This document shows, in pieces, positions 6,172-61,991 of a stretch of DNA of 64,000 bases. Both the position numbers and the translations under genes were made by a program. How positions within the stretch are numbered: position 1 is the stretch's first letter; every line of letters starts with the position of its first letter. This DNA is from an uncultured Clostridia bacterium (lineage in GTDB: Bacteria; Bacillota; Clostridia; Christensenellales; Aristaeellaceae): the NCBI GenBank assembly GCA_947166705.1, contig CAMVFE010000006.1, forward strand, positions 1 through 64,000, read 5' to 3'. The notes beneath the pieces are model-generated. The model had not been told where the DNA came from. It saw only the letters and a list, made by a program, of their open reading frames with translations, and ran no database searches.

Positions 6172-7416
6172 ATGAAGAAAATGCTGTCTGTGCTGCTGGC
6201 GGCGCTGATGATGGTTTCGCTGCTGGCCGTGCCCGCCCTGGCTGAGGATCAGGTGCTGACCGTGGTGACCTGGGACGCCACCACCACCCCCTACCTGACG
6301 GCCCAGAAGGAAGCGTTCGAAGCTTCCCACCCCGGCGTCAAAATCGAGTACATCGACGTGGACGCCGCGGACTGGCCCACGAAGGCCCCCAGCATCCTGG
6401 CCCAGCCGAACGACAAGTCCGACGTGTTCATGATCAAGGAAATTGACCAGCTGATCAACTGGCAGGCCCAGGGCTACGCCGCCCCCCTGACCGACTACAT
6501 CGACGGCTATGACATGTCCGGCTTCCTGGGCACCGAAGCGAACTACGCGGTGGACGGCGTGCAGTACGCCATCCCCTTCCGCAGCGATTTCTGGGTGCTG
6601 TTCTACAACAAGGATCTGTTCGACGCGGCCGGCGTGGCCTATCCCACGAACGACCTGACCTGGGATCAGTACGCCGAGCTGGCGAAGAAGCTGACGGACA
6701 AGGACAAGGGCGTCTACGGCACTCACTACCACACCTGGCTCTCCACCGTGGTGAACTGGGCGGTCTGCGGCACGGACTACACCCTGGCCGACGGGAAGTA
6801 CGACAACCTGCTCTACTTCTACAAGCTGTATCAGGATCTTGAGGACAGCGGCGCCTGCATGGCCTACGACGAGCTGAAGGCTTCCGGCCTGAAGTACGCG
6901 GCGGCCTTCGAGAACGGAAACGTCGCCATGCTGCCCATGGGCTACTGGCTGGTGTCCACCGTGATCGGGGACATCAAGGCCGGCAACGCCAGCCTGAACT
7001 GGGGCATCGCCGCCGTTCCGCACGCGGATGGCGTCGCGGCCGGCTCCTCCTTCGGCAACCTGACCGGCGCGATGATCAGCGCGAAGTCCGAGCAGAAGGA
7101 TCTGGCGTGGGAGTACATCTCCTGGCTGGGCGGCCCGGAAGGCGCCAAGGCGACGGCTTCCGTCGGCGCGCGTCCTGCCTGGGTCTCCGCGGAAGTCGCG
7201 GATGTGATGGCCTCCGTGGACGGCTTCCCGGCTGACGAAAACAGCAAGGGCGCCCTGCTGCCCGCGAGCGTGGCCATGGAGTGGCCGGTGGCGGACAAGG
7301 TCGCCGATATCAAGACCATCGTCAACGACGAGCACAGCCTGATCATGGCCCGCGAAATCACCCCCGAGGAGGGCATCGAAGAGATGAACGAGCGCGTGGC
7401 CGAGCTGTTCAACTGA
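6172..7416 (+). CDS. ABC importer substrate-binding protein (family 1, sugar)
   Basis: A 414-residue extracellular solute-binding protein. Residues 1-24 are a signal peptide (MKKMLSVLLAALMMVSLLAV, cleavage near ALA-ED); there is no lipobox Cys. The body has the family-1 pattern: VVTWDATTTPYLTAQKEAFEASHPGVKIEYI, YAIPFRSDFWVLFYNKDLFDAAGV, LTWDQYAELAKKLT, GNVAMLPMGYWLVS and the C-terminal KDLAWEYISWLGGPEGAK. It starts at an ATG after AAGGAGGAA. It is the first gene of an operon with two permeases and catabolic enzymes for uronides, so the ligand is probably a glucuronate-containing oligosaccharide. The operon encodes no ATPase; a shared MsmK-type ATPase elsewhere is likely. Confidence 0.93.
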   Translation: MKKMLSVLLAALMMVSLLAVPALAEDQVLTVVTWDATTTPYLTAQKEAFEASHPGVKIEYIDVDAADWPTKAPSILAQPNDKSDVFMIKEIDQLINWQAQGYAAPLTDYIDGYDMSGFLGTEANYAVDGVQYAIPFRSDFWVLFYNKDLFDAAGVAYPTNDLTWDQYAELAKKLTDKDKGVYGTHYHTWLSTVVNWAVCGTDYTLADGKYDNLLYFYKLYQDLEDSGACMAYDELKASGLKYAAAFENGNVAMLPMGYWLVSTVIGDIKAGNASLNWGIAAVPHADGVAAGSSFGNLTGAMISAKSEQKDLAWEYISWLGGPEGAKATASVGARPAWVSAEVADVMASVDGFPADENSKGALLPASVAMEWPVADKVADIKTIVNDEHSLIMAREITPEEGIEEMNERVAELFN

Positions 7417-25426: not shown

Positions 25427-25524
25427 GGTTAACAAATTAACCGATATAAAACAACGGAAAAGGGCTTGACGGGACTCTTTTTTGATGCTATCGTATGGGC
25501 AGCGAGATGGTTAATCGTGTAACC
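25427..25524. promoter_or_regulatory. two LacI-type operators (GGTTAA palindromes)
   Basis: Site 1 is GGTTAA-CAAA-TTAACC (25427-25442), a perfect palindrome. Site 2 is GGTTA-ATCGTG-TAACC (25509-25524). They bracket the importer promoter, with site 2 just past the expected transcription start. Confidence 0.78.
25466..25494 (+). promoter_or_regulatory. sigma-A promoter of the second ABC operon
   Basis: TTGACG (25466-25471), 17-bp spacer, TATCGT (25489-25494). It is flanked by the two palindromic operators. Confidence 0.7.
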
Positions 25525-25560
25525 ACCATCAAAAAAACAATTTTCAGAGGAGGAAGAACC

Positions 25561-26880
25561 ATGAAGAAACTGTTGGCAATCGTGCTTTGCCTGGCGCTGG
25601 CGCTGCCGGCGCTCGCGCTGGCGGAAGGCGACGGGCGGGTCCATATCACCTACTCCTTCTGGGGTGATCAGACCGAATTTGAGAGCGTGCAGAAGGTTCT
25701 GGATGAATACAACCAGATGCAGGACAAGGTTTTTGTCGAACCCATGCAGATCGCCAACGAACAGTACACGGAAACGCTGGTCAACTACGCGATCGCGGAT
25801 CAGCTGCCGGACTGCGGCATGGTGAACGAAAACTCCGTGCTGTACTTTGCCCGGAACGGCGTCATGGCCGACGTGTCCGACATGTATGCCGGCGAGGAGC
25901 TCCAGCCCATGGACTGCATCACCTTCAAGGATGACGGGACTCCGGTCGGCTACTCCAGCTGCAACGAAATCCTCATCATGTACTACAACAAGGATATGTT
26001 TGACGCGGCCGGCGAGCCTTATCCCTCCGCGGACAAGCCCTACACCTGGGACGAGTTCGTGGAAGTCGCAAAGCGGCTCACCTTCGACGAAGCCGGAAAG
26101 CATCCCGGCGAGGAAGGCTTCAACCCCGAAAAGATCGTGCAGTACGGCGCCTTTGTGAACAACTGGACCTGGCAGATGGAAGTCTGGGCCCTGTCCAACG
26201 GCGGCGCGTGGTTCTCCGACGACGGCAAGCAGTGCCTGATCAACAGCCCCGAGGTCATCGAGTCCATCCAGAAGGTGGCCGACCTGGCCCTGGTGGAGCA
26301 CGTCGCTCCGCTCAACGTGATTCCCGAGGACAACGGGGTGGGCGTTGGCATCGGCAGCAAGACCGTCGCCATGACCACGGACGGCACCTGGCGCCTGGGA
26401 ACCGATTTCCCGAACCTGGACATCAACTACGGCATCGCGCCGCTGCCCGTGATGAAGGAAGAGGTCACCCTGTGCACGTCCGGCCTGACCGGCGTGTTCA
26501 AGGGCAAGCACCAGCAGGAAGCCTATGACTTTGTCAAATGGTACACCCGTGAGGAAAGCAACTGGGATTCCCTTGTGCTGACAGGCATCTGGCTGCCCAA
26601 GAGCGAATACTTCTACAAGACCGAGGAAGGCATCAGCAAGTGGCTGGGCAACGAAAAGTATCCCTACAACAAGGACATGGAAACCGGCCGGAAGGTGCTG
26701 GTGGATTACACCATGAACAACGCGAAGCCCGCCTGCTGGTACTACACCCCCAACACCCAGATCACCACCAACGAGATCCTGTTCACCGCGCTGCAGAGCG
26801 TGTGGAGCGGCGAACGCACGGCCGAGGATGTCATCAACGAGATCTATCCCGATCTGTGCGAAGCGATTCAGATCGACTGA
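25561..26880 (+). CDS. ABC importer substrate-binding protein (arabinoxylan-oligosaccharide locus)
   Basis: A 439-residue family-1 solute-binding protein. The signal peptide MKKLLAIVLCLALALPALA ends near ALAEG, and no lipobox is present. Body motifs: ITYSFWGDQTEFESVQKVLDEYNQ, GTPVGYSSCNEILIMYYNKDMFDAAGEPYP, TWDEFVEVAKRLT, MTTDGTWRLGTDFP and YDFVKWYTREES. The RBS is AGGAGGAAG; an in-frame ATG 66 bp upstream falls before the operator and is not a sensible start. The neighbours (GH8, GH127, two permeases) point to arabino- or xylo-oligosaccharides as ligand. The operon has no ATPase gene. Confidence 0.93.
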   Translation: MKKLLAIVLCLALALPALALAEGDGRVHITYSFWGDQTEFESVQKVLDEYNQMQDKVFVEPMQIANEQYTETLVNYAIADQLPDCGMVNENSVLYFARNGVMADVSDMYAGEELQPMDCITFKDDGTPVGYSSCNEILIMYYNKDMFDAAGEPYPSADKPYTWDEFVEVAKRLTFDEAGKHPGEEGFNPEKIVQYGAFVNNWTWQMEVWALSNGGAWFSDDGKQCLINSPEVIESIQKVADLALVEHVAPLNVIPEDNGVGVGIGSKTVAMTTDGTWRLGTDFPNLDINYGIAPLPVMKEEVTLCTSGLTGVFKGKHQQEAYDFVKWYTREESNWDSLVLTGIWLPKSEYFYKTEEGISKWLGNEKYPYNKDMETGRKVLVDYTMNNAKPACWYYTPNTQITTNEILFTALQSVWSGERTAEDVINEIYPDLCEAIQID

Positions 26881-52444: not shown

Positions 52445-53554
52445 ATGGACGAACAAAAGAAGCCTGAGATTACGGAGATCGCCATTGTGGATGAACGCTC
52501 TATCCGGGACAAGATTTATGTTGTCCGGGGCGTGAAGGTTATGCTCGATTTTGAGCTGGCGGAGATATATGGATATACCACATCTCGCTTTAACGAACAG
52601 GTCTCTAATAATATTGAGAAATTCGAAGGCGATGATTTCTGCTTCTACCTGACACAGGAGGAATTTAAGGAATTGAAAAACTTGATATCGAAAAAATCGA
52701 CATCAAGTTGGGGCGGACGTCGAAAACCGCCAAGAGCATTCACGGAATCTGGTCTTTATATGCTAATGACTGTGCTTCGCGGTGACCTGGCAACGCAGCA
52801 GAGCCGAGCGTTAATTCGGGTCTTTCGTGCAATGAAGGATTTTATAGTTGAAACGCAGGGCCTGGTAACCCAGCGTGATCTACTGCGCCTTTCTATTCAA
52901 ACAGCAGAAAATACTGATGCAATAAAGAACATGAGCTTGATGCTGGCGGATCAACAGAAGATGATCACCAATCAGCAACAATTATTGCTTGAACATGACG
53001 ATAAACTTGTTGATGCGTTTGAGCGCATTAATGAAACGGTAAAACAGTCAGATTTATCTCCTGTAATGATGAAATTCGATCTTACTGAGGAAACGAACAG
53101 AGAATTCCTGCTTCGAGACGGGCATCCAGCCAAGGCGGATGCAACATATATCGATATTTACAGCAAGGCGACAAAAACAGTCTACATCATTGACAACTAC
53201 ATCAATATCAAGACGCTACGTCTGCTTCAGGACGTGAAACCTGGCGTTGCCGTGACGGTATTTAGTGACAATCTCCGCAACAACCTTCATCAAAGCGATA
53301 AAGCGGATTTTCAGGTAGAGTTTCCCAATATACCAATTGACTTCATTACCACAGGCGGTATCATGCACGACCGGTTTATTGTGCTGGACTATAATACAGC
53401 AGAAGAGCGCTTCTATCATTGCGGTGCATCTTCCAAGGACGCGGCGATTAAACTGACCACAGCGATCATGGAGATTACCTCTCAGGATATGAAAGCTCAG
53501 ATGCATGTTCTGATTGACCAGATGAAGGGAAATCCTCAGTTGCTCCTGAAATGA
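52445..53554 (+). CDS. ORF6N-domain protein with PLD-like C terminus
   Basis: A 369-residue protein. Residues 10-150 are an ORF6N (KilA-N-related) DNA-binding domain: IRDKIYVVRGVKVMLDFELAEIYGYTTSRFNEQVSNN, DDFCFYLTQEEFKEL, PPRAFTESGLYMLMTVLRGDLATQQSRALIRVFRAMKDF. A coiled coil spans about 160-205 (MLADQQKMITNQQQLLLEHDD). Residues 235-350 resemble a phospholipase D-like half site: ATYIDIYSKATKTVYIIDNYI, VTVFSDN, then MHDRFIVLDYNTAEERFYHCGASSKDA, with HxR where HxK is canonical. ORF6N proteins are often phage or mobile-element regulators; the tail suggests nucleic-acid cleavage or a decoy. The RBS is CAGGAGGT. Confidence 0.85.
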   Translation: MDEQKKPEITEIAIVDERSIRDKIYVVRGVKVMLDFELAEIYGYTTSRFNEQVSNNIEKFEGDDFCFYLTQEEFKELKNLISKKSTSSWGGRRKPPRAFTESGLYMLMTVLRGDLATQQSRALIRVFRAMKDFIVETQGLVTQRDLLRLSIQTAENTDAIKNMSLMLADQQKMITNQQQLLLEHDDKLVDAFERINETVKQSDLSPVMMKFDLTEETNREFLLRDGHPAKADATYIDIYSKATKTVYIIDNYINIKTLRLLQDVKPGVAVTVFSDNLRNNLHQSDKADFQVEFPNIPIDFITTGGIMHDRFIVLDYNTAEERFYHCGASSKDAAIKLTTAIMEITSQDMKAQMHVLIDQMKGNPQLLLK

Positions 53555-53669
53555 CAGGAACCTGATAGATGAAAATATTCCCGTGGGGTTGTGAACTCCA
53601 TGGGTTTTCTTGTGCAAATGGGGGGTGTAAAAAATTATTTTAGCCGTGTGCTGATTTCTCTTTCCCATC

Positions 53670-53683
53670 CGTCTAATAGGTGT
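53670..53683 (+). promoter_or_regulatory. candidate ECF-sigma -10 element (CGTCTAATAG), first cassette
   Basis: CGTCTAATAGGTGT at 53670-53683, 29 bp before the first sigma gene. The same CGTCTAATAG with GATGT occurs at 56866 and CGTCTGATAG at 57166. CGTC-type -10 boxes are typical of ECF sigma factors. No convincing shared -35 was seen. Confidence 0.6.
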
Positions 53684-53711
53684 AACGTTACGAAACAGGA
53701 GGCAGAACACC

Positions 53712-54170
53712 GTGGACAGGGCATTCTTCATCGCAGAGATCGAAACCTGCTCGGACATGATGTACCGGGTAGCTTGGTCGATCCTGCGGAACGAAGCCGA
53801 TGTGCAGGACGCACTACAAGATGCTGTCCTCAAGGCCTGGGAAAAGCGGGACAAACTGTGTGAAGAGAAGTACTTCCGCACCTGGATAACCCGCATACTG
53901 ATCAATGTGTGTTATGACATACAACGAATGCATCGGAAAATCGTTCCATTGGACAAGATCCCTGTACAAAGCTTTTCTGTCCCAGACCCTGATCTGGCGA
54001 TGGCATTGGAAGCTCTTCCGGAGAAGCTTCGATTGCCCCTTGTCCTCTGCTATTCAGAGGGAATGACCTATGAGGAAGCAGCAGACGTGTTGCGAATCCC
54101 GATGACGACTCTTCGAGGACGACTTCGCCGGGGGAAAAAAGAACTGAGAAAGGAGCTGGATGCGGAATGA
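53712..54170 (+). CDS. ECF-type RNA polymerase sigma factor
   Basis: A 152-residue sigma-70 family factor. Region 2 is CSDMMYRVAWSILRNEADVQDALQDAVLKAWEKRDKLCEEKYFRTWITRILINVCYDI. Region 4 is ALEALPEKLRLPLVLCYSEGMTYEEAADVLRIPMTTLRGRLRRGKKELRKEL. The start is GTG 53712, preceded by AACAGGAGGCAGAA. It overlaps the anti-sigma gene by 4 bp (ATGA), the usual coupling of such pairs. A CGTCTAATAG motif upstream suggests autoregulation. Confidence 0.93.
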   Translation: MDRAFFIAEIETCSDMMYRVAWSILRNEADVQDALQDAVLKAWEKRDKLCEEKYFRTWITRILINVCYDIQRMHRKIVPLDKIPVQSFSVPDPDLAMALEALPEKLRLPLVLCYSEGMTYEEAADVLRIPMTTLRGRLRRGKKELRKELDAE

Positions 54171-55297
54171 AGCGTGATATGGACAATCTGGATCTGCGGG
54201 ATGCTTTCAGTCCAATGCCGGAAGAGACCCGGAAAGCGCTGATGACTGCCGCTCGCTCCGTGAAGGAGGACGAACCCGTGAAAAAGGTAGCTTTTAGAAC
54301 CGTGTTGATTGCGGCTTGTGTTATTGTGGCGACCATGGCAGTGGCTGTGGCAGCCGGCAGTATTTTCGGATGGAATGATTTCTTCAAAAAGGACTATGGC
54401 ACTGATATCCCAAAAACCGCTCAGGAAATCATGGCAACGTGTGAACCTGTATCATGGCAGGAAGGTGATGTGGTTTTCACCATCCGGGAACGTTACAGTG
54501 ATTCCCGGCTGGCTATGATTTCTGTTGAAGCCCGGCTGGCGGACGGCGTGAAGGGGATTCTGGCAGCGGATGATTTCACCGAAGCCATCGGTGCCTACGG
54601 GGAAAACAGCGCCGCCGTTGCAAAACAGATCGGTGTCGATCCGTCCATGACCTGGGTGGAAGCTGCGAAAGAACTGAACCTGCCTCTGTACAGCGTCCGC
54701 GCCACGTTGGAGATTCCGTCTGAACTCTGGGGCAGCGAAGCATATGAGGATCCCATGTTCAATGATGATGGCAGCCTGACGTATTTCTCCCTGCAGCCCC
54801 TGAACGGGCAGATCAGCGGTGAGGAAATCAAAGCCCAGGTGTATCTGCGGACAAAGCTGGTGAACCTGGAAGACGCGGAGGATGATACCAACGTCACGAA
54901 GGAATACGTAGATCTACCCATCCATACCGAAAAGGCTATTGCTACGGCAGAATACATCATTCCTGAAGACACAAAGGTGCTGGATGCCTTCCGGATTGAC
55001 AGCATCCAAGCGGAACTGCTGCCCAGCGGTCTGCACTTCACGACCAACCTGACTGCTGTGGAAGGCGCGACACAGGGTATGGCCATCGACAAGCTGAGGG
55101 TGGACATCGTGCAGGAGAACGGAGAAGCTTATCCCACCGGTATTACCCTTTCCAGTGGCTTCTCCAATCTTGATACCTGGCCGCAGATTCCGTATACGCA
55201 GATGATTTCTGTGGATCAGATTCCGGAAACAATTCATCTGGTATTCCCCGATGCAAGCGGGAATGACACCATGCTGGTGCTGCAGCTGAAAAAGTAA
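54167..55297 (+). CDS. membrane anti-sigma factor, DUF4179 type
   Basis: A 376-residue protein: a short acidic/amphipathic cytosolic N terminus (residues 1-45, MPEETRKALMTAARSVKEDEPVKK), one membrane span (FRTVLIAACVIVATMAVAVAAGSIFG), and a large extracytoplasmic beta-rich region. The topology and the position right after a sigma gene match DUF4179 anti-sigma proteins; the N terminus would hold the sigma factor. The outside portion (EITMATCEPVSWQEG-like, VSVEARLADGVKG) is the presumed sensor. It is coupled to the sigma gene by overlap and is followed by a hairpin (55308-55343). Confidence 0.88.
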   Translation: MKRDMDNLDLRDAFSPMPEETRKALMTAARSVKEDEPVKKVAFRTVLIAACVIVATMAVAVAAGSIFGWNDFFKKDYGTDIPKTAQEIMATCEPVSWQEGDVVFTIRERYSDSRLAMISVEARLADGVKGILAADDFTEAIGAYGENSAAVAKQIGVDPSMTWVEAAKELNLPLYSVRATLEIPSELWGSEAYEDPMFNDDGSLTYFSLQPLNGQISGEEIKAQVYLRTKLVNLEDAEDDTNVTKEYVDLPIHTEKAIATAEYIIPEDTKVLDAFRIDSIQAELLPSGLHFTTNLTAVEGATQGMAIDKLRVDIVQENGEAYPTGITLSSGFSNLDTWPQIPYTQMISVDQIPETIHLVFPDASGNDTMLVLQLKK

Positions 55298-55307
55298 AGA
55301 TCCATTC

Positions 55308-55343
55308 GGAGCGCCGTCATCTTCAAACGGATGGCGGCGCTCC
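55308..55343 (+). other. intra-operon hairpin after the first anti-sigma gene
   Basis: GGAGCGCCGTCATC / GATGGCGGCGCTCC, 14 bp with one G-T pair and an 8-base loop. There is no T tract, so it more likely tunes mRNA stability than ends transcription. Confidence 0.6.
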
Positions 55344-55357
55344 CTTCGGGAGGAAAA

Positions 55358-55474
55358 ATGAAGAACCTGTTTTGTATCCTGCTGCTGGCAGTGATGCTCT
55401 TATTGGTCATTGCCCAATATGCCTGCGCTGATGAGGAAATGGCAGAAAGAACGGATGAGGAGTTTAAGCCATGA
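55358..55474 (+). CDS. 38-residue membrane or exported peptide
   Basis: ATG 55358 after GGGAGGAAAA. It encodes MKNLFCILLLAVMLLLVIAQ followed by YACADEE and a charged tail ending EEFKP. The first 22 residues form a signal peptide or single membrane span. Its TGA (55472-55474) overlaps the next gene's ATG at 55471, so the two are translationally coupled. The good RBS and the overlap argue that it is real. Its role is unknown; it could be a small membrane partner of the anti-sigma factor or of the downstream binding protein. Confidence 0.65.
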   Translation: MKNLFCILLLAVMLLLVIAQYACADEEMAERTDEEFKP

Positions 55475-56793
55475 ATAAGCCGATGAACAACGTCTCTCGC
55501 GTCCTGCAGGTGGCAGTGATGCTGCTCGCGATCATACTGCTTGCGATGACCGTCGCGCAGGCGACACTGGCAGAGGGACAGACCGTGCTTATTGTGTATG
55601 GTGATGAAGACGCGGGAAACACGGAGAATCTCCATGCCGATTGGGCATCCATGATTGGTTCCGCCGGTACGTTGGAGGAACTACAGTTTTCCGGATATCA
55701 AAAGACTATGGATGTTGTGGCAGGCAACAATCCTCTGGATTTCTTCATGATTGAGAACCGTGACTGTATTGCGGATTTTATCGAAAAAGGACTGGTTTCC
55801 GCCTTCGAACCAACCCGGATGATGCTGGATGACATTGCCGCCATGCCTGCGTTTGTCCAAAACGCGATCCGTGACAATCTGATGACGGAGGACGGACGGC
55901 TGTATGGTTTCCCGAATAATATAAACAGTCGTGAATCGCTCTATTATACGGATGCCTGGACGGATTCACCGTTTCGAGATATGTCGCCGCCGTCTTCCTT
56001 TGAGGAACTGCTTGATTTTGTTGAAATCTATCTGGAAACGCCGCATGACGGGTTCTGCTTTTACTATGATCGATTGGGTCATGCGAATGTGACCTGGTTC
56101 GTTCACATGCTGATGGAGTATCACACGCTGCAATGTAGGCATGCCGGATATGAGCCCGTTTTCAATGATCCTGATTTTATTAGCATGGCAGAGCGTACAC
56201 GCGATCTTTTCGGCAGGCTGTTCGCCATTGAGAAGGATACAAAGCACCAGAAAGGGCATCAGCTTTTTACGGATTGTTACGCAGGCATTGCTACCAACGG
56301 TCTGGATACCTTCACACAGGACAACCTGATTCCTTGGCGCATTAAGTCAGATCAGCCCCCATTGTTTCCCGTATCTATCCAGATCTACTGTGTCAGAAAT
56401 GGAAGCGAGTTTGTCGATCAGGCTCCCGCCTTCTTTGAATGTATTGTTACGCATCGGAAAGATCCATTATCTGATGGGAATATTAACTATGCGTCTTACA
56501 CCCTCGTCCATCCGGACTGGGTCGATATGAAAGCCTTCCGAACGGATAAGGCTAAAATGTTTGGGGAAAAGTGGGTGTTTACCTGTGCGACACAGGAATA
56601 TCTGGACAGCGTATGGCGGCTTGATCAACATGCCGTCCCTGCGCTGGAATACGAAATCTGCTGGGACTCCTCAATTAAGGGTGCTCACAACGAGGCATAT
56701 GCCGCTGTGGATGACTTTGTGAACGGAAAAGAAAGTGCGGAACAGTTTTCCATCCGCTTGGACAGGTTGGTCAGCGAGATGCCAGGTTCATGA
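55471..56793 (+). CDS. extracellular solute-binding-like protein in a sigma cassette
   Basis: A 440-residue secreted protein: signal peptide to about residue 35 (VAVMLLAIILLAMTVAQATLA-EG), then a binding-protein-like fold: TVLIVYGDEDAGNTENLH, NNPLDFFMIENRDCIADFIEKGLVSAFEPTRMMLDDIAAMPAFVQNAI, TEDGRLYGFPNNINSRESLYYTDAW, SFEELLDFVEIYLETPHDG. These resemble family-1 solute-binding proteins. No permease or ATPase gene is near. It is instead coupled to a 38-residue peptide downstream of a sigma/anti-sigma pair, so it may be a sensor subunit rather than a transporter part. A UUCG-loop terminator follows. Confidence 0.78.
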   Translation: MNKPMNNVSRVLQVAVMLLAIILLAMTVAQATLAEGQTVLIVYGDEDAGNTENLHADWASMIGSAGTLEELQFSGYQKTMDVVAGNNPLDFFMIENRDCIADFIEKGLVSAFEPTRMMLDDIAAMPAFVQNAIRDNLMTEDGRLYGFPNNINSRESLYYTDAWTDSPFRDMSPPSSFEELLDFVEIYLETPHDGFCFYYDRLGHANVTWFVHMLMEYHTLQCRHAGYEPVFNDPDFISMAERTRDLFGRLFAIEKDTKHQKGHQLFTDCYAGIATNGLDTFTQDNLIPWRIKSDQPPLFPVSIQIYCVRNGSEFVDQAPAFFECIVTHRKDPLSDGNINYASYTLVHPDWVDMKAFRTDKAKMFGEKWVFTCATQEYLDSVWRLDQHAVPALEYEICWDSSIKGAHNEAYAAVDDFVNGKESAEQFSIRLDRLVSEMPGS

Positions 56794-56812
56794 TGAAAAT
56801 GTCTGTTATTTG

Positions 56813-56840
56813 AAGCAGCTTCGGCTGCTTTTTTTGTTTA
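56813..56840 (+). terminator. rho-independent terminator with TTCG loop
   Basis: AAGCAGC (56813-56819), TTCG, GCTGCTT (56824-56830), then TTTTTTGTTT. It ends the first sigma cassette. Confidence 0.93.
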
Positions 56841-56865
56841 GAGCAATCAAAACATCAGGCCGAAC

Positions 56866-56879
56866 CGTCTAATAGATGT
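56866..56879 (+). promoter_or_regulatory. candidate ECF-sigma -10 element (CGTCTAATAG), small ORF
   Basis: CGTCTAATAGATGT at 56866-56879, identical over 10 bp to the motif before the first sigma gene and 14 bp before the RBS/start region of the 88-residue ORF. Confidence 0.55.
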
Positions 56880-56893
56880 GGAGGATGATGAAA

Positions 56894-57160
56894 ATGAGGA
56901 AACATCGGCTGTGTGTGATCAGAAGGCAGGGCGATCAGTATCGTTCGATTTCAATCCGACTTCATCGGGATAAGGTGACCGGAGATCGGTCTGTTTCGCT
57001 GTCTGGATTTGGCTGTATGCTGATGTTTTGTGTGGAGAAAATAATTCCTGAATTAATCAACCTCGTTAAGCCGAATGGACGGTTTCCCAGACAACTACCC
57101 TGTGATATACTTGCCGCAGCAGAAAAAGATTCTTTCGAAGGTAAAACCTTTCGGCGGTAG
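56894..57160 (+). CDS. small hypothetical protein, 88 aa
   Basis: ATG 56894 with GGAGG 9 bases upstream; three earlier in-frame ATGs overlap the RBS. The N-terminal part is very basic (MRKHRLCVIRRQGDQYRSISIRLHRDK). A mildly hydrophobic middle (LSGFGCMLMFCVEKIIPELINLV) and a polar tail follow. I do not recognise it. Its position behind a CGTCTAATAG motif, between two sigma cassettes, is the main reason to keep it; it may be a decayed gene. Confidence 0.4.
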   Translation: MRKHRLCVIRRQGDQYRSISIRLHRDKVTGDRSVSLSGFGCMLMFCVEKIIPELINLVKPNGRFPRQLPCDILAAAEKDSFEGKTFRR

Positions 57161-57165
57161 TTATT

Positions 57166-57177
57166 CGTCTGATAGAT
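57166..57177 (+). promoter_or_regulatory. candidate ECF-sigma -10 element (CGTCTGATAG), second cassette
   Basis: CGTCTGATAGAT at 57166-57177, one mismatch from the motif at 53670 and 56866, and 84 bp before the second sigma gene. Confidence 0.5.
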
Positions 57178-57260
57178 AGAACCAGCAAAAAGCGCTATGC
57201 TGGTGATCATCTCCGGAGAGCGGACGCGCTGGATCGGAGAACTCAAAGGGGAACGATGTC

Positions 57261-57743
57261 GTGGATGCTGAAATGTTTCAAGCGGAAGCCCGGCGGATTG
57301 AGAGGCTGCTATACCGCATCGCCCGATCGTACCTGAATGATGATCAGGAAGCGGAGGACGCGGTGCAGGATGCATTGATCAAGGCCTGGGAGAAGAGAAA
57401 AACTCTGAGGGATATCCATCAGTTTAAGCCGTGGATGACCCAGATCCTCTCCAACCGGTGCAAGGATATACTGCGTAAGCGCAAAAGATGGAGCTTTTTT
57501 CCGCTGGAGGAAGATACCGCCCAGGTGGAGATGCCGGAGACAGAAAACGCGGTGACAGAGGCTATGAAGAAGCTGAAACCGGAACTGCGGATCGTCATGA
57601 CGCTTCACTATGTGGATGGATATTCTATTCAGGAGATGGCAGAAGCCCTGGGAATCCCCACGGGTACCATCAAAACCAGAATGCGTAACGCACGGAAGCA
57701 GCTTGGCAGGACTCTCCTCATTGATTGGGAGGAAGAAGTATGA
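57261..57743 (+). CDS. second ECF-type RNA polymerase sigma factor
   Basis: A 160-residue sigma-70 family factor. Region 2 is ERLLYRIARSYLNDDQEAEDAVQDALIKAWEKRKTLRDIHQFKPWMTQILSNRCKDILRKRKR. Region 4 is AMKKLKPELRIVMTLHYVDGYSIQEMAEALGIPTGTIKTRMRNARKQL. The start is GTG 57261 behind AAAGGGGAA. It overlaps the DUF4179 gene by 4 bp. It is related in layout to the sigma factor at 53712 but clearly diverged, so this is not a fresh duplication. Confidence 0.93.
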   Translation: MDAEMFQAEARRIERLLYRIARSYLNDDQEAEDAVQDALIKAWEKRKTLRDIHQFKPWMTQILSNRCKDILRKRKRWSFFPLEEDTAQVEMPETENAVTEAMKKLKPELRIVMTLHYVDGYSIQEMAEALGIPTGTIKTRMRNARKQLGRTLLIDWEEEV

Positions 57744-58981
57744 AGAACAATGAATTCAAAGAGAAACTGACATCTGTGACCCCTGAGATCCCGGAGCATT
57801 TCCACAATCGAATGGAAATGACCCTGGAGAACATTGTTTCACAGGAGGCTCACATGAAAGAATCTACCAAGAAAGCGATCCGCACTGCGGGCCGCTACTC
57901 CACCCGTACGATCGTAATTGCTGCTGTGCTGGCTGTGATGCTCTGTGCTGTGGCCCTGGCCGCGACCCAATGGCATGTGTTTGACCGGCTGCCCTTCATG
58001 CTGGGAAAGGGAACTCCCCCCATGGCGGATGAACTGATGCAGAGCAATCTTTATCAGGATACCGTGAACAACGTGGAAATCACCGTTCGGGAAGCAGGCT
58101 ATGATGGCCGAACGCTGCTGGTAGAGTACAGCTACCGGATGCTGGATGTGGATAAGGTATTCGGTGTTACTGCGGCGGAGGAGTTCGGCGAAAATCTGCC
58201 GGATGGAATGGAGCCTGATACTATCTTGGAGCAGTTGAGTGACGAAGCGTTTGATGCGCTGGCTGCTCATCATGTTGGCTGGAACTTTGACCAGCTGTGG
58301 ATCAACGGCCAGGGTGTCAATATGCCGAACAACTCCGGTGCGGTCTACAGCGGCAGCAAGGTGCCTGGTGAGATTATCTACACGGAATACTGGCGGCTGG
58401 ACAACGAGGGCGTGTTCCTGCATGACGGCGTAAATCAGATTACGCTGCCCATCGGCGCGAGCGTTGATGCGGAAACTCGGAAGAGTCTGGCTGATCAGGA
58501 GACAAAGATGTACCGGATGCCGGAGAGCGGCGTAGTCACCTTCAATTATGAGGTGAAGGACATCTCTTCTCAGGTGAAGAGCTTCTCACTGAACGAGGAA
58601 AAGGTACTGCCGGACGTGACCGCAAAGGTGACGGATGCCACCTTCACGCCCCTGATGACTTACATCACCCTTGATCTGAAGGTGAATCCGGATTCCCTGG
58701 CAGCTTTCATTGCGGCAAACGGTGAAGGGCCTAAGAACGACGATGGCGAAGTGATGTGGCCCTACGGCGGTATGGATGTGTTTGGTGAATGGGTTGAAAG
58801 TCTGGAACTGGTGGATGTAAAGGGCCAGCAGGTCTTCCCAGGTCATTATGGCCAGAACGGTATTGGCAATGAATGGGCTGAGTTCCTGTATCCCCATCTG
58901 GACAATATTCCTGATGAGTTATTCCTTGCTCCGATCAAAAACGGTCAGGCAGATATGGCACAGGCCGTACGGGTCAAATAA
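57740..58981 (+). CDS. second membrane anti-sigma factor, DUF4179 type
   Basis: A 413-residue single-span protein. The cytosolic N terminus (residues 1-60) carries FKEKLTSVTPEIPEHFHNRMEMTLENIV. The span is STRTIVIAAVLAVMLCAVALAAT. The exterior is long and beta-rich with a DUF4179-like start (QWHVFDRLPFMLGKG) and a C-terminal domain (VTFNYEVKDISSQVKSFSLNEEK, PLMTYITLDLKVNP). ATG 57740 overlaps the sigma stop; an in-frame ATG 15 bp upstream is less well placed. It is expected to sequester the sigma factor at the membrane. A hairpin with a T run follows. Confidence 0.88.
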   Translation: MKNNEFKEKLTSVTPEIPEHFHNRMEMTLENIVSQEAHMKESTKKAIRTAGRYSTRTIVIAAVLAVMLCAVALAATQWHVFDRLPFMLGKGTPPMADELMQSNLYQDTVNNVEITVREAGYDGRTLLVEYSYRMLDVDKVFGVTAAEEFGENLPDGMEPDTILEQLSDEAFDALAAHHVGWNFDQLWINGQGVNMPNNSGAVYSGSKVPGEIIYTEYWRLDNEGVFLHDGVNQITLPIGASVDAETRKSLADQETKMYRMPESGVVTFNYEVKDISSQVKSFSLNEEKVLPDVTAKVTDATFTPLMTYITLDLKVNPDSLAAFIAANGEGPKNDDGEVMWPYGGMDVFGEWVESLELVDVKGQQVFPGHYGQNGIGNEWAEFLYPHLDNIPDELFLAPIKNGQADMAQAVRVK

Positions 58982-58997
58982 TTCAGGGCTTACCACT

Positions 58998-59028
58998 GGG
59001 GGCGAGAGCAAACCCTTGCCCCCTTTTC
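58998..59028 (+). terminator. hairpin with T run after the second anti-sigma gene
   Basis: GGGGGC (58998-59003) ... GCCCCC (59018-59023), followed by TTTTC. The stem can be extended by inner pairs. The next gene begins soon after, so it may be an attenuator. Confidence 0.6.
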
Positions 59029-59045
59029 AAACGGAGGTTTTGGCT

Positions 59046-60137
59046 ATGAGGAGGCAAGCAGTAATGAAACGTATCCTTGTATCTTTGTTACTGATCATTA
59101 CCCTGCTTATTGGCATTTCAGCAGAAGCAGAAGACAGATTCACGATTTCGGACATATACGAGCAATACAATGGCTGGCGCTGGCAGGCGGATTATGAAAC
59201 CGTCCGCAATGAGACCATCCATGTGGATGTGGAGATTTCCGTTCCGCAGGCGGATGCTATTCATGTGCTGTCAACCAGGTACATGCCCAAGGGCTATGAT
59301 GAAGCGAATGTGCAAGAGGGAGAGCAGATCGTGAATAGTCATGCAGGCTGGTTCAGCTGTACATGGCCCAATGACGCTTTCTGGAGAGAGGCAAAAAAGA
59401 AAGGGCTGCAGGAAGTCTATGCTGAGCCTGCTCCACTGGTGCTCCAATACGGACAGTTTGACATGAATACGGCCTATTCTGTCAATAATGCCCTGACAGT
59501 ACAGGACGCCTTAGATCAAACACAGGCAATTGTAGACCGCTTTTTCCCGGGACAAAGCATTCAATTGGTTCCCCATATTGTTCACGCAGATGTGAATCCC
59601 GGAGAGTACAAGCGTGGCAAAACAGGCGATTATGAATTGGTAAAGGAAGTCCCGGATTATAAAGGAGTGCTGTTCGTTATGTTTGATCAATGCATAGATG
59701 GCGTACCCGTGCTCGATCCTGATTGTAACGGAAGTTACAGTGCCTGGTGTATCATGAGAAGTATGGCAGATTATGGCTTGGATAGCTATCAGTATCACAT
59801 GGCTTATCAGTTTTTTTCCGATTTTCAGCCGAAGAAGAATGATGTGAAGATTTGCGCACCTTCTGAAATTATCAAAGCAGCTGAAACGATGATCCAGGAA
59901 GGTAAACTGCGCTCTGTCTATTCCCTGCGGCTTGGATATGCTGCTTTTTCCGAGGGAAAAGGAAAAGTGAAGTTGAAGCCTGTCTGGGTAATCGAGGGAG
60001 AACTGTTTGAAAAGGCGAAATCCGAGCCTGATAATATCAAGACAGTTCTTTCGATTGGCAGCCTTGAAGAAACGAAAATCATATTTGACGCGCAGACGGG
60101 TATATTGCTGGATACCCGCAGGATGTCTTATCAGTAA
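59046..60137 (+). CDS. secreted protein of unknown function in the second sigma cassette, ~363 aa
   Basis: Start ATG 59046 (RBS GGAGG at 59034) or ATG 59064 (RBS GAGGAGG at 59048); both give a signal peptide, RILVSLLLIITLLIGISAEAE. The mature part is a mixed alpha/beta protein: YNGWRWQADYETVRNETIHVDVEISVPQADAIHVLSTRYMP, ALTVQDALDQTQAIVDRFFPGQSIQLVPHIVHA, GVLFVMFDQCIDGVPVLDPDCNGSYSAWC, LRLGYAAFSEGKGKVKLKPVWVIEG, IIFDAQTGILLDTRRM. The last two resemble YcdA/YycI-like regulatory exterior domains (PepSY-like strands). It is third in a sigma / anti-sigma / secreted protein cassette. Confidence 0.72.
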   Translation: MRRQAVMKRILVSLLLIITLLIGISAEAEDRFTISDIYEQYNGWRWQADYETVRNETIHVDVEISVPQADAIHVLSTRYMPKGYDEANVQEGEQIVNSHAGWFSCTWPNDAFWREAKKKGLQEVYAEPAPLVLQYGQFDMNTAYSVNNALTVQDALDQTQAIVDRFFPGQSIQLVPHIVHADVNPGEYKRGKTGDYELVKEVPDYKGVLFVMFDQCIDGVPVLDPDCNGSYSAWCIMRSMADYGLDSYQYHMAYQFFSDFQPKKNDVKICAPSEIIKAAETMIQEGKLRSVYSLRLGYAAFSEGKGKVKLKPVWVIEGELFEKAKSEPDNIKTVLSIGSLEETKIIFDAQTGILLDTRRMSYQ

Positions 60138-60257: not shown

Positions 60258-60989
60258 GTGGATAAGCAACTTGAAAATCTGGAAGGATATAGAACGATTC
60301 ATCTGAAGGCAGGCGCAAAGGACGGGGCGTTGAGGGAAAAGCGCATCGCGCTTGAAATGACGCAACAGGAGGTTGCCGATAAAGCGAAGATTAGCCTGTC
60401 CAGCTATCAGAAGTTCGAGATTGGCGACAGGAATATCCGGACTGCCTCTTTTGAACTGGTCTGCCGCGTGCTCAAAGCACTGGAGATGGACCCCACTGCC
60501 TTTTATGAAGGGGAATATGTTTTCGGAGAGCCGACTATCTTTGATAAGGAAGGCCGTAAATACATCCGATCAGGACGGTTGATTGATGAGGAAATCAATG
60601 AACAGGAAGCGGCTAACGCGATGCGCATACATTTTATCGAAGGCGCGATGGTCATACCGCTAAAGGCGCTCCGGGCGCTTAATAGTCCAGAATACCTGGA
60701 ACTGCTGTATCAGGATAACCGTCTTGGGATTAGGGTGGTAAAGAAAAAAGATGAATATGCGCTGACAATTCCGAAGACAGTATACAGCGGCAGATGGCGC
60801 GGAGTCCGGATCTGCAGGCAGCCGTTCACGGAGATGGTCTATGAGCTCATGGGCGGAAAAAAAGGCAACTACTCCGGAGATCTGTCTTTCTTTGAAAAAG
60901 GCTGCGTAATGGCGCTGGATGAAGTCTTTCCGTCAGAGTACATGATTAACGAAGAGCAGTTTTTTCTGGTGGATAATCCCGAAGAATGA
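60258..60989 (+). CDS. XRE-family regulator with C-terminal extension
   Basis: A 243-residue protein. Residues 20-80 form an HTH_3 domain (GALREKRIALEMTQQEVADKAKISLSSYQKFEIGDRNI ... LVCRVLKALEMDPTAFYEGE). The remaining ~160 residues (KEGRKYIRSGRLIDEEINEQEAANAMRIHFIEGAMVIPLKALRAL, LGIRVVKKKDEYALTIPKT, EEQFFLVDNPEE) are not recognised and may sense a signal. The start is GTG 60258 after GAAGGGGCGA. It precedes the RepA-like ATPase gene by 12 bp and is probably an operon repressor acting on the palindrome in its own promoter. Confidence 0.85.
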   Translation: MDKQLENLEGYRTIHLKAGAKDGALREKRIALEMTQQEVADKAKISLSSYQKFEIGDRNIRTASFELVCRVLKALEMDPTAFYEGEYVFGEPTIFDKEGRKYIRSGRLIDEEINEQEAANAMRIHFIEGAMVIPLKALRALNSPEYLELLYQDNRLGIRVVKKKDEYALTIPKTVYSGRWRGVRICRQPFTEMVYELMGGKKGNYSGDLSFFEKGCVMALDEVFPSEYMINEEQFFLVDNPEE

Positions 60990-61001
60990 GAGGTATCGTC
61001 G

Positions 61002-61991
61002 ATGTATTGTCCCTACAAGCCGGAAGAGTTGGTTCCCAAAGATATCGAGTATTTCTGGCCCGGTGCGATTGCGTATGGTTTTCCCGCGTATATCAATGGA
61101 TCAACCGGCCTTGGGAAAACCAATGTGTTTCTGAAAGTGATGGCGGATGCAAGTAACGGAATTTTCCCACCTGGAATAGAAAGAGGCAGTCTTGCGGAGC
61201 CGATACATTCTGATCCAATCCGGAGCTTTTATGTATCAACGGAGAATCCTGTGTGCGAGATCGCTTATCCGGCGCTTCTGTACAATGGTGCGGATAAAAG
61301 GATGTTCAAGATTCAGAAGGAAGAAGAAGGCCATTTTGTATTATGCACAGAAGACCTGATGGCGGCTGTGGAGGACTTTGATCCCCGGCTTTTCATCATT
61401 GACGCTTTTCAGGAACATCTGCCGGACGGATGCAGTCTGTCTGATGGTGATCAGATGAGCGAATTGATGCAAGAACTCGAGCGCTTTGCATATAAGACCA
61501 AAGTAGCACTGGTTCTTATCGGAAATGACGCAAAGGGATCTGAAGGTAGATCGGACGCAAATAAACTGCTCGGCAGTGGTGTCATCGCCCGCCGAGCGAG
61601 ATCAATGATCACGGTCAAGGAATCAGGGAATGAACGATATCTTAAAGTGACAAAACGTCTGGGTTTCACACGGAAGGAAGATACGCTGATCGGATACAGA
61701 TTCAATGAAGATAACCATCTGGAATTCTATCTGTATGATGACGGGAACAGTGAACCTGCAGAAGCTGAAGATGACGTTGTCCAGTTCATCAGGAAAACTC
61801 TGTCGAATGGGCCGATTGATGGCCACGATCTCTTCGCCATCGGGAAGGATAACGGATTCACAAAGGATCCGATCTACAAGAATCTGCGAAAGGCCGGTGC
61901 GAAGAAAGCAAGGCATAACGGAAACAATACTTTATGGTATCTGCCGGAAGTGACGCCGGACATAGAAGAGCACACGAGGAATCTGAAATAG
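61002..61991 (+). CDS. RepA-like (AAA_25) ATPase
   Basis: A 329-residue RecA-fold ATPase of the hexameric replicative helicase RepA/AAA_25 type. Walker A is INGSTGLGKTNVFLKVMADASNG. The Walker B region is EDFDPRLFIIDAFQEHLP. Sensor-like strands are ALVLIGNDAKGSEG and GSGVIARRARSMITVKESGNERYLKVTKRLGF. The C-terminal 80 residues resemble a winged helix (DDVVQFIRKTLSNGPIDGHDLFAIGKDNGFTKDPIYKNLRKAGAKK). Such proteins accompany integrated plasmids, ICEs and phage-like elements. No integrase or relaxase is in the window. Confidence 0.87.
   Translation: MYCPYKPEELVPKDIEYFWPGAIAYGFPAYINGSTGLGKTNVFLKVMADASNGIFPPGIERGSLAEPIHSDPIRSFYVSTENPVCEIAYPALLYNGADKRMFKIQKEEEGHFVLCTEDLMAAVEDFDPRLFIIDAFQEHLPDGCSLSDGDQMSELMQELERFAYKTKVALVLIGNDAKGSEGRSDANKLLGSGVIARRARSMITVKESGNERYLKVTKRLGFTRKEDTLIGYRFNEDNHLEFYLYDDGNSEPAEAEDDVVQFIRKTLSNGPIDGHDLFAIGKDNGFTKDPIYKNLRKAGAKKARHNGNNTLWYLPEVTPDIEEHTRNLK

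What the first reader, a model, noticed from the sequence alone, without database searches (positions are those of the whole stretch)
53670..60137. Two tandem sigma / DUF4179 anti-sigma / secreted-protein cassettes sharing CGTCTAATAG
Each cassette has a 4-bp overlap between sigma and anti-sigma genes and a secreted third product: in one a solute-binding-like protein plus a 38-residue peptide, in the other a PepSY-like protein. A CGTCT(A/G)ATAG motif stands before both sigma genes and before a small ORF between them. The secreted partner may be the sensed or sensing component, which would make these three-part surface signalling units. A binding protein without a transporter supports a sensory job.
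Basis: partly seen in the sequence, partly recalled or inferred. Interest (0 to 1): 0.7.

Follow-up and report, generated by a model that had tools for sequence, protein, structure and literature searches.

The report
Sigma-factor cassettes with swappable secreted partner
A gut bacterium carries two neighbouring gene sets, each made of a gene switch, its membrane-bound lock and a secreted third protein; related bacteria keep this order but exchange the third protein, which suggests surface sensors with an exchangeable antenna, although the antenna role is inferred, not shown.

Summary
Both sigma genes overlap an anti-sigma gene by 4 bp, and a secreted protein follows each. The CGTCT(A/G)ATAG motif is the -10 element of an ECF-type promoter: CGTCTAA lies within 120 bp upstream of 45 of 58 related sigma genes, against 0 of 58 control windows. 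The -35 elements differ (GTGAcGATT for cassette 1, AAAACC for cassette 2), so the cassettes probably have separate specificities. Anti-sigma 1 folds like the DUF4179 anti-sigma 3FBQ. The 'PepSY-like' protein folds like YycI, a regulator of a sensor kinase, and natural DUF4179-YycI fusions exist. The binding protein is exchanged between relatives: sigma 95%, anti-sigma 93%, binding protein 35% identical. The 38-residue peptide is a relic signal peptide, not a signal. Cassette 2 looks horizontally acquired. Best reading: three-part envelope-signalling units with an exchangeable secreted ligand-binding partner. Sensing itself is inferred; the third protein could instead be the output.

The parts
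53648..53679 (+). Promoter of cassette 1: -35 GTGCTGATT, 13-nt spacer, -10 CGTCTAATAG
   Evidence: motif; consensus GTGAcGATT-N13-CGTCTAAT in relatives; only exact match in the own genome
53712..54170 (+). ECF-type sigma factor 1 (152 aa, GTG start)
   Evidence: Sigma70_r2 E 2e-12, Sigma70_r4_2 E 9e-12
54167..55297 (+). Anti-sigma factor 1 (376 aa): short cytoplasmic N-terminus, one TM helix, conserved AxA after the TM, beta-rich ectodomain
   Evidence: model pLDDT 84; best PDB match 3FBQ; A62 in 16/16, A60 in 14/16
55298..55357 (+). Strong RNA hairpin (64-nt region MFE -32.9 kcal/mol) between anti-sigma 1 and the third gene; terminator-like in several relatives
   Evidence: 44 of 54 relatives have MFE < -18 in the 70 nt after the anti-sigma
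55358..55474 (+). 38-aa ORF: relic signal peptide of an earlier solute-binding-protein gene, overlapping the start of the present one
   Evidence: repeat D1; (same sequence is the SBP N-terminus in L119 and L121)
55471..56793 (+). Secreted orphan solute-binding-like protein (440 aa, sugar-type SBP), third gene of cassette 1
   Evidence: SBP_bac_8; profile matches sugar-binding proteins, best E 3e-9; position conserved; swapped
56866..56875 (+). CGTCTAATAG upstream of the small ORF; its -35 region is of neither cassette type
   Evidence: CGTCTAAT upstream of the homologous ORF in all five other loci inspected
56885..57160 (+). Small conserved protein-coding ORF (91 aa from this start), found elsewhere in the genomes of genus members
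57143..57175 (+). Promoter of cassette 2: -35 AAAACC, 17-nt spacer, -10 CGTCTGATAG
   Evidence: conserved in L067, L068, L069; only match in the own genome
57261..57743 (+). ECF-type sigma factor 2 (160 aa, GTG start)
57740..58981 (+). Anti-sigma factor 2 (413 aa): one TM helix, conserved AxA, DUF5643-like C-terminal part
   Evidence: DUF5643 E 4e-4, DUF4179 E 0.034, both below cut-off; A72 in 17/17, A74 in 16/17
58985..59038 (+). GC-rich hairpin followed by TTTT between anti-sigma 2 and the third gene
59046..60137 (+). Secreted YycI-fold (PepSY-like, DUF6034-related) protein (363 aa), third gene of cassette 2
   Evidence: model pLDDT 87; 5COZ E 2.4e-8, YycI 2O3O E 5.6e-7; DUF6034 in 14 of 29 members

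Best explanation
Each cassette is an autoregulated, three-part envelope-signalling unit. The ECF sigma factor transcribes its own operon from a promoter with -10 CGTCT(A/G)AT and a cassette-specific -35. The DUF4179-type anti-sigma holds it at the membrane; a signal-peptidase site (AxA) just outside the membrane is probably masked by amphipathic helices, as in RsiV. A secreted protein encoded next (a sugar-type solute-binding protein in cassette 1, a YycI-fold protein in cassette 2) most likely binds an extracellular ligand and controls whether the anti-sigma is cleaved, after which a site-2 protease frees the sigma. The SBP is exchanged between relatives while sigma and anti-sigma stay, as expected of an exchangeable input module. 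Shown: gene order and its conservation, promoter elements, predicted folds, fusions, swapping of the SBP. Inferred: autoregulation, secretion, contact with the anti-sigma, ligand binding, cleavage, direction of the effect.
For: Conserved order sigma/anti-sigma/SBP across several genera; the six best SBP matches in the family all lie directly downstream of an anti-sigma gene. Sigma/anti-sigma/YycI-like order in 10 of 20 anti-sigma-2 loci. DUF4179 anti-sigma proteins with a C-terminal YycI-like domain in one chain: L132, L170, L172, L174, L175 and L069 (L069: Pfam DUF4179 0.002 plus YycI 3.8e-5), and the unfused version as a separate secreted third gene in L171. YycI fold; YycH/YycI are accessory membrane proteins of the WalK sensor kinase (PMC7355866). 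SBP swapped with position kept. AxA after the TM conserved and a site-2 protease family member present, matching RsiV activation by signal peptidase (PMC6066255). SBP genes also beside sigma-less relatives of the anti-sigma ectodomain.
Against: About half of the related anti-sigma loci lack the third gene or carry another one: NodB-type deacetylase (L133, L146, L189) or VanW (L122), so an anti-sigma of this kind can work without an SBP. No SBP-anti-sigma fusion was found. The strict promoters occur only at these cassettes in the 71%-complete assembly, so the third protein could itself be the output. The fused YycI-like domain matches the window's family only moderately (HHalign probability 67%, E 5e-5).
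Confidence: 0.52

Rival explanations
1. The third protein is the output, not the sensor. The anti-sigma itself senses an envelope signal (as RsiV senses lysozyme), and the sigma factor makes a secreted protective or nutrient-binding protein whose identity varies between strains.
For: Third genes in some relatives are a polysaccharide deacetylase or VanW-like protein; sigV and a pgdA-like gene share a promoter sequence in Enterococcus faecalis (PMC2836378). Strict cassette promoters are found only here in the assembly. A terminator-like hairpin precedes the third gene, which would suit induced read-through.
Against: YycI-like domains are fused to anti-sigma proteins. SBPs also sit next to sigma-less homologues of the anti-sigma ectodomain. 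An SBP without a permease is an odd effector.
Confidence: 0.3
2. The third gene acts as a dispensable decoy or surface protein under diversifying selection (for example from phage or toxins), kept at the operon end for expression only.
For: The SBP varies far more than sigma and anti-sigma (35% against 95% and 93%) and its tree disagrees with theirs.
Against: The exchanged genes stay within one fold family at the same place in many lineages; the cassette-2 third gene is not hypervariable against G100 (92%).
Confidence: 0.08
3. Chance neighbours: no functional link between the third genes and the sigma units.
For: Two cassettes in tandem were seen only in this genome; the closest cassette-1 relatives show no cassette 2 beside cassette 1.
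Against: Recurrence of each order in many genera, with swaps that keep the position, and fusions.
Confidence: 0.05
4. Both cassettes form one regulon controlled through the shared CGTCTAATAG motif.
For: The -10 core is shared and also precedes the small ORF.
Against: The -35 elements differ between the two families and are conserved within each; cassette 2 appears to have come from another genus.
Confidence: 0.05

Closest known systems
SigV-RsiV (ECF30, DUF4179 anti-sigma), Bacillus subtilis
   Same: ECF sigma with a membrane anti-sigma; DUF4179-like helices and a signal-peptidase-type AxA after the TM; RIP-type activation is plausible
   Different: RsiV itself binds lysozyme; no SBP or YycI-like third gene is known to be needed. 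The anti-sigmas here score below the DUF4179 cut-off by sequence
BAS1627 of Bacillus anthracis (3FBQ)
   Same: Best PDB fold match of anti-sigma 1 (E 1.9e-7, TM 0.45/0.56)
   Different: 9% identity; uncharacterised function; its gene neighbourhood was not examined
YycI/YycH accessory proteins of WalK
   Same: Fold of the cassette-2 third protein (2O3O); act outside the cytoplasm on a membrane sensor
   Different: Partner is a histidine kinase, not an anti-sigma; YycI is membrane-anchored (general knowledge); 12% identity
RpoE-RseA-RseB (rpoE operon)
   Same: Sigma, anti-sigma and extracytoplasmic modulator encoded in that order (RseB role from general knowledge)
   Different: RseB is of another fold family; Gram-negative periplasm
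SBP-dependent sensor kinases (for example ChvE-VirA, LuxP-LuxQ; from general knowledge)
   Same: A solute-binding protein used as a sensor partner
   Different: Kinase output, not ECF sigma/anti-sigma; no such pairing with an anti-sigma was found in the papers searched

Membership tests
ECF sigma factors | Sigma-70 regions 2 and 4 only, about 150-190 aa | tested here: met
DUF4179 anti-sigma factors (ECF30-associated, RsiV/BAS1627 kind) | DUF4179 profile match above the curated cut-off | tested here: not met
   E 0.095 and 0.034, 13.6 and 15 bits against 30.1; a homologue in L132 does pass, 30.3 bits
DUF4179 anti-sigma factors (ECF30-associated, RsiV/BAS1627 kind) | Ectodomain fold of the solved member 3FBQ | tested here: met
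   for anti-sigma 1; anti-sigma 2 was not modelled
DUF4179 anti-sigma factors (ECF30-associated, RsiV/BAS1627 kind) | Signal-peptidase cleavage site with amphipathic helices | tested here: inconclusive
   AxA conserved, helices 69-77 and 83-90 in the model; cleavage not testable here
ECF30 sigma group | Match to the group's own profile | not testable with these tools
   no ECF-group profile library at hand
Extracellular solute-binding proteins | SBP family profile and N-terminal signal sequence | tested here: met
   SBP_bac_8 in 5 of 9 members, best E 3e-9; the window protein itself scores E 3e-5, 24.2 bits against a cut-off of 27; hydrophobic N-terminus
ABC importer components | Permease and ATPase genes alongside | tested here: not met
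   none within the cassette or its conserved neighbourhood
YycI/YycH family (PF09648) | Fold of 2O3O | tested here: met
   E 5.6e-7, probability 1.00, TM 0.37/0.52
YycI/YycH family (PF09648) | Profile match above cut-off | tested here: not met
   no Pfam hit for the window protein; weak YycI hits in 2 of 29 relatives

The most novel reading that the evidence does not exclude
A family of ECF sigma/anti-sigma units in gut Clostridia (Christensenellales-type) that use an exchangeable orphan sugar-binding protein, or a YycI-fold protein, as a plug-in ligand sensor: the transduction core stays nearly constant while the binding protein is replaced between close relatives, giving each strain a different input.
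Probability: 0.38. Interest if true: 0.8.

Novelty: new variant of a known kind. Interest (0 to 1): 0.6.

Why it matters
Many ECF sigma/anti-sigma pairs in Firmicutes have no known signal. A genetically encoded, exchangeable third component would say where the ligand specificity lies and give a direct way to find the signals (ask what the binding protein binds). It would also extend two known sensor-partner folds, SBP and YycI, from histidine kinases to anti-sigma factors, with natural fusions as evidence.

Tried and rejected
DUF4179 search of the own genome at E 0.01 found nothing, because these members are divergent. Rfam search of the region: no RNA family. Motif count in the window alone is not significant; conservation in relatives was used instead. 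The 38-aa ORF as a signalling peptide: rejected. Shared regulon through the motif: disfavoured by different -35 elements. Phage origin: a viral-contig scan gave only remote sigma relatives, about 31% identity at best except one short stretch. SBP-anti-sigma fusion: none found. A solved-structure sequence search with the YycI-like profile gave nothing useful, so the fold search was needed. Literature on SBP plus anti-sigma, and on YycI plus anti-sigma: nothing on point. No ECF-group classification was possible. Some neighbourhood ORFs come from a greedy caller and may be false; conclusions use only profile-matched genes.

Full report
What is there. The region 53648-60137 holds two operons on the + strand. 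Each starts with an ECF-type sigma gene (Sigma70_r2 and r4), overlaps by ATGA with a single-TM anti-sigma gene, and is followed by a secreted protein: a sugar-type solute-binding protein (SBP_bac_8 E 3.3e-5; profile matches to XOS- and maltose-binding proteins) in cassette 1, and a protein without a Pfam match in cassette 2. Between them lies a small ORF.

Promoter. CGTCTAATAG is found exactly twice in the whole assembly, both times here. In relatives, CGTCTAA lies within 120 bp upstream of 45 of 58 sigma-1-type genes and in 0 of 58 control windows inside the neighbouring anti-sigma. The aligned consensus is cGTGAcGATT-N13-CGTCTAAtgggTGT. Cassette-2 sigma genes instead have AAAACC-N16/17-CGTCTGAT. 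The motif is thus the -10 of an ECF-type promoter at the head of the sigma operon, as expected of autoregulation, but the -35 elements differ between cassettes. Each strict promoter occurs once in the own genome (the assembly is 71% complete). The small ORF is a conserved gene that lies elsewhere in the genomes of genus members; all five other homologues inspected also have CGTCTAAT upstream, in most with a third kind of -35 region.

Conserved gene order. In 150 genomes of the same family, the cassette-1 SBP gene is directly downstream of the anti-sigma-1 gene in seven genomes besides the window (G132, G066, G011, G033, G148, G088, G144). In public MAGs found with the sigma-1 profile, 18 loci show the SBP there and one more was seen; six of these appear to be the same genomes as above. 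The six best SBP matches in the family all lie directly downstream of an anti-sigma gene (G019 included). For cassette 2, the YycI-like gene follows the anti-sigma in 10 of 20 loci including the window, sometimes as two or three tandem copies. Roughly half of the loci of each type have no such third gene, or another one: a polysaccharide deacetylase (E 1.6e-24) or a VanW protein (E 5.8e-34).

Folds. The model of anti-sigma 1 (pLDDT 84) has 3FBQ, the DUF4179 anti-sigma of B. anthracis, as its best PDB match, E 1.9e-7. DUF4179 holds the signal-peptidase site of RsiV, protected by amphipathic helices until lysozyme binds (PMC6066255). In both anti-sigmas an AxA follows the TM and is almost invariant, and the genome has an M50 protease. 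The model of the cassette-2 third protein (pLDDT 87) matches 5COZ and YycI (2O3O) with E 2.4e-8 and 5.6e-7. YycH and YycI are accessory membrane proteins of the sensor kinase WalK (PMC7355866).

Fusions. Six anti-sigma genes in relatives encode the DUF4179 part and a C-terminal YycI-like domain in one chain (L132, L170, L172, L174, L175, L069), while L171 has the same domain as a separate secreted third gene directly behind its anti-sigma. The fused domain aligns with the window's family over the C-terminal 92 columns (HHalign E 5.4e-5, probability 67%). Such fusions are the best available sign that this type of third protein works together with the anti-sigma.

Exchange of the SBP. Between the window and locus L118 the sigma is 95% and the anti-sigma 93% identical, but the SBP only 35%; L119 and L121 are similar. 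In the SBP tree the window groups with the first of two tandem SBPs of L123, whereas L118 groups with L121 and L126, against the order of sigma and anti-sigma. The 38-residue ORF in front of the SBP matches the SBP gene start (78% over 41 nt) and is the SBP's own N-terminus in L119 and L121. It is therefore a relic of an earlier SBP gene, probably from differential loss in a tandem array.

Other anatomy. A strong hairpin stands between anti-sigma and third gene in both cassettes and in most relatives (44 of 54 with MFE below -18 kcal/mol in 70 nt); in some it has a T-run like an intrinsic terminator. With little room for another promoter, the third gene is probably made by read-through, at lower level. 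This is inference.

Horizontal transfer. Sigma 1 is 78-81% identical to genus members and 53-75% to the other relatives aligned, as expected of vertical descent. Sigma 2 is 95% and 86% identical to another genus (G100, G048) but only 64-65% to its own genus. DNA similarity with G100 begins at the small-ORF promoter (56866) and ends at the stop of the YycI-like gene (60137). The closest cassette-1 relatives show no match to cassette 2 beside cassette 1. Cassette 2 with the small ORF was thus probably acquired as a unit.

Interpretation. Sensing by the third protein is favoured (0.52) over output (0.30). For the YycI-like type the fusions carry the argument; for the SBP type it rests on conserved position, swapping, absence of a transporter, and SBPs next to sigma-less relatives of the anti-sigma ectodomain. 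No experiment bears on it.

Noticed in passing
window 6172-7416 and 25495-26880: SBPs that sit in ABC-importer operons here have SPase-I-type signal peptides (ALAED, ALAEG) and no lipobox cysteine, unusual for a monoderm Bacillota; worth asking whether this lineage has a periplasm-like compartment.
   Followed up: no
window 56885-57160; G091, G066, G132, G100, G125 (L220-L224): A small conserved protein family whose gene has CGTCTAAT upstream in every one of the six loci inspected, with a -35 region unlike either cassette in most: possibly the target of a third ECF sigma.
   Followed up: partly
L198:8029-16762: Array of four SBP genes alternating with similar 126-aa secreted proteins, ending in a sigma-less homologue of the anti-sigma ectodomain (also L206, L208): SBP/ectodomain sets without a sigma gene.
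   Followed up: partly
L128:6616-8739, L073:12017-14257, L077:7750-9954: 700-750-aa secreted proteins with an SBP-like part and a long extra part without Pfam match; in L073 and L077 they lie beside YycI-like genes.
   Followed up: no
window 57177-57260: Leader of sigma 2 (about 85-95 nt) with two predicted hairpins, nearly identical in G100 and similar in G116 and G048; no Rfam match. Possible RNA regulatory element.
   Followed up: partly
window 52445-53554 and 60258-61991: ORF6N-domain gene before the cassettes, XRE-type regulator and AAA_25 ATPase after them: mobile-element-like genes flanking the pair.
   Followed up: no
L122:6984-8006; L133, L146, L189: VanW-like and NodB-type deacetylase genes in the third position of the cassette, which look like cell-wall outputs.
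   Followed up: yes
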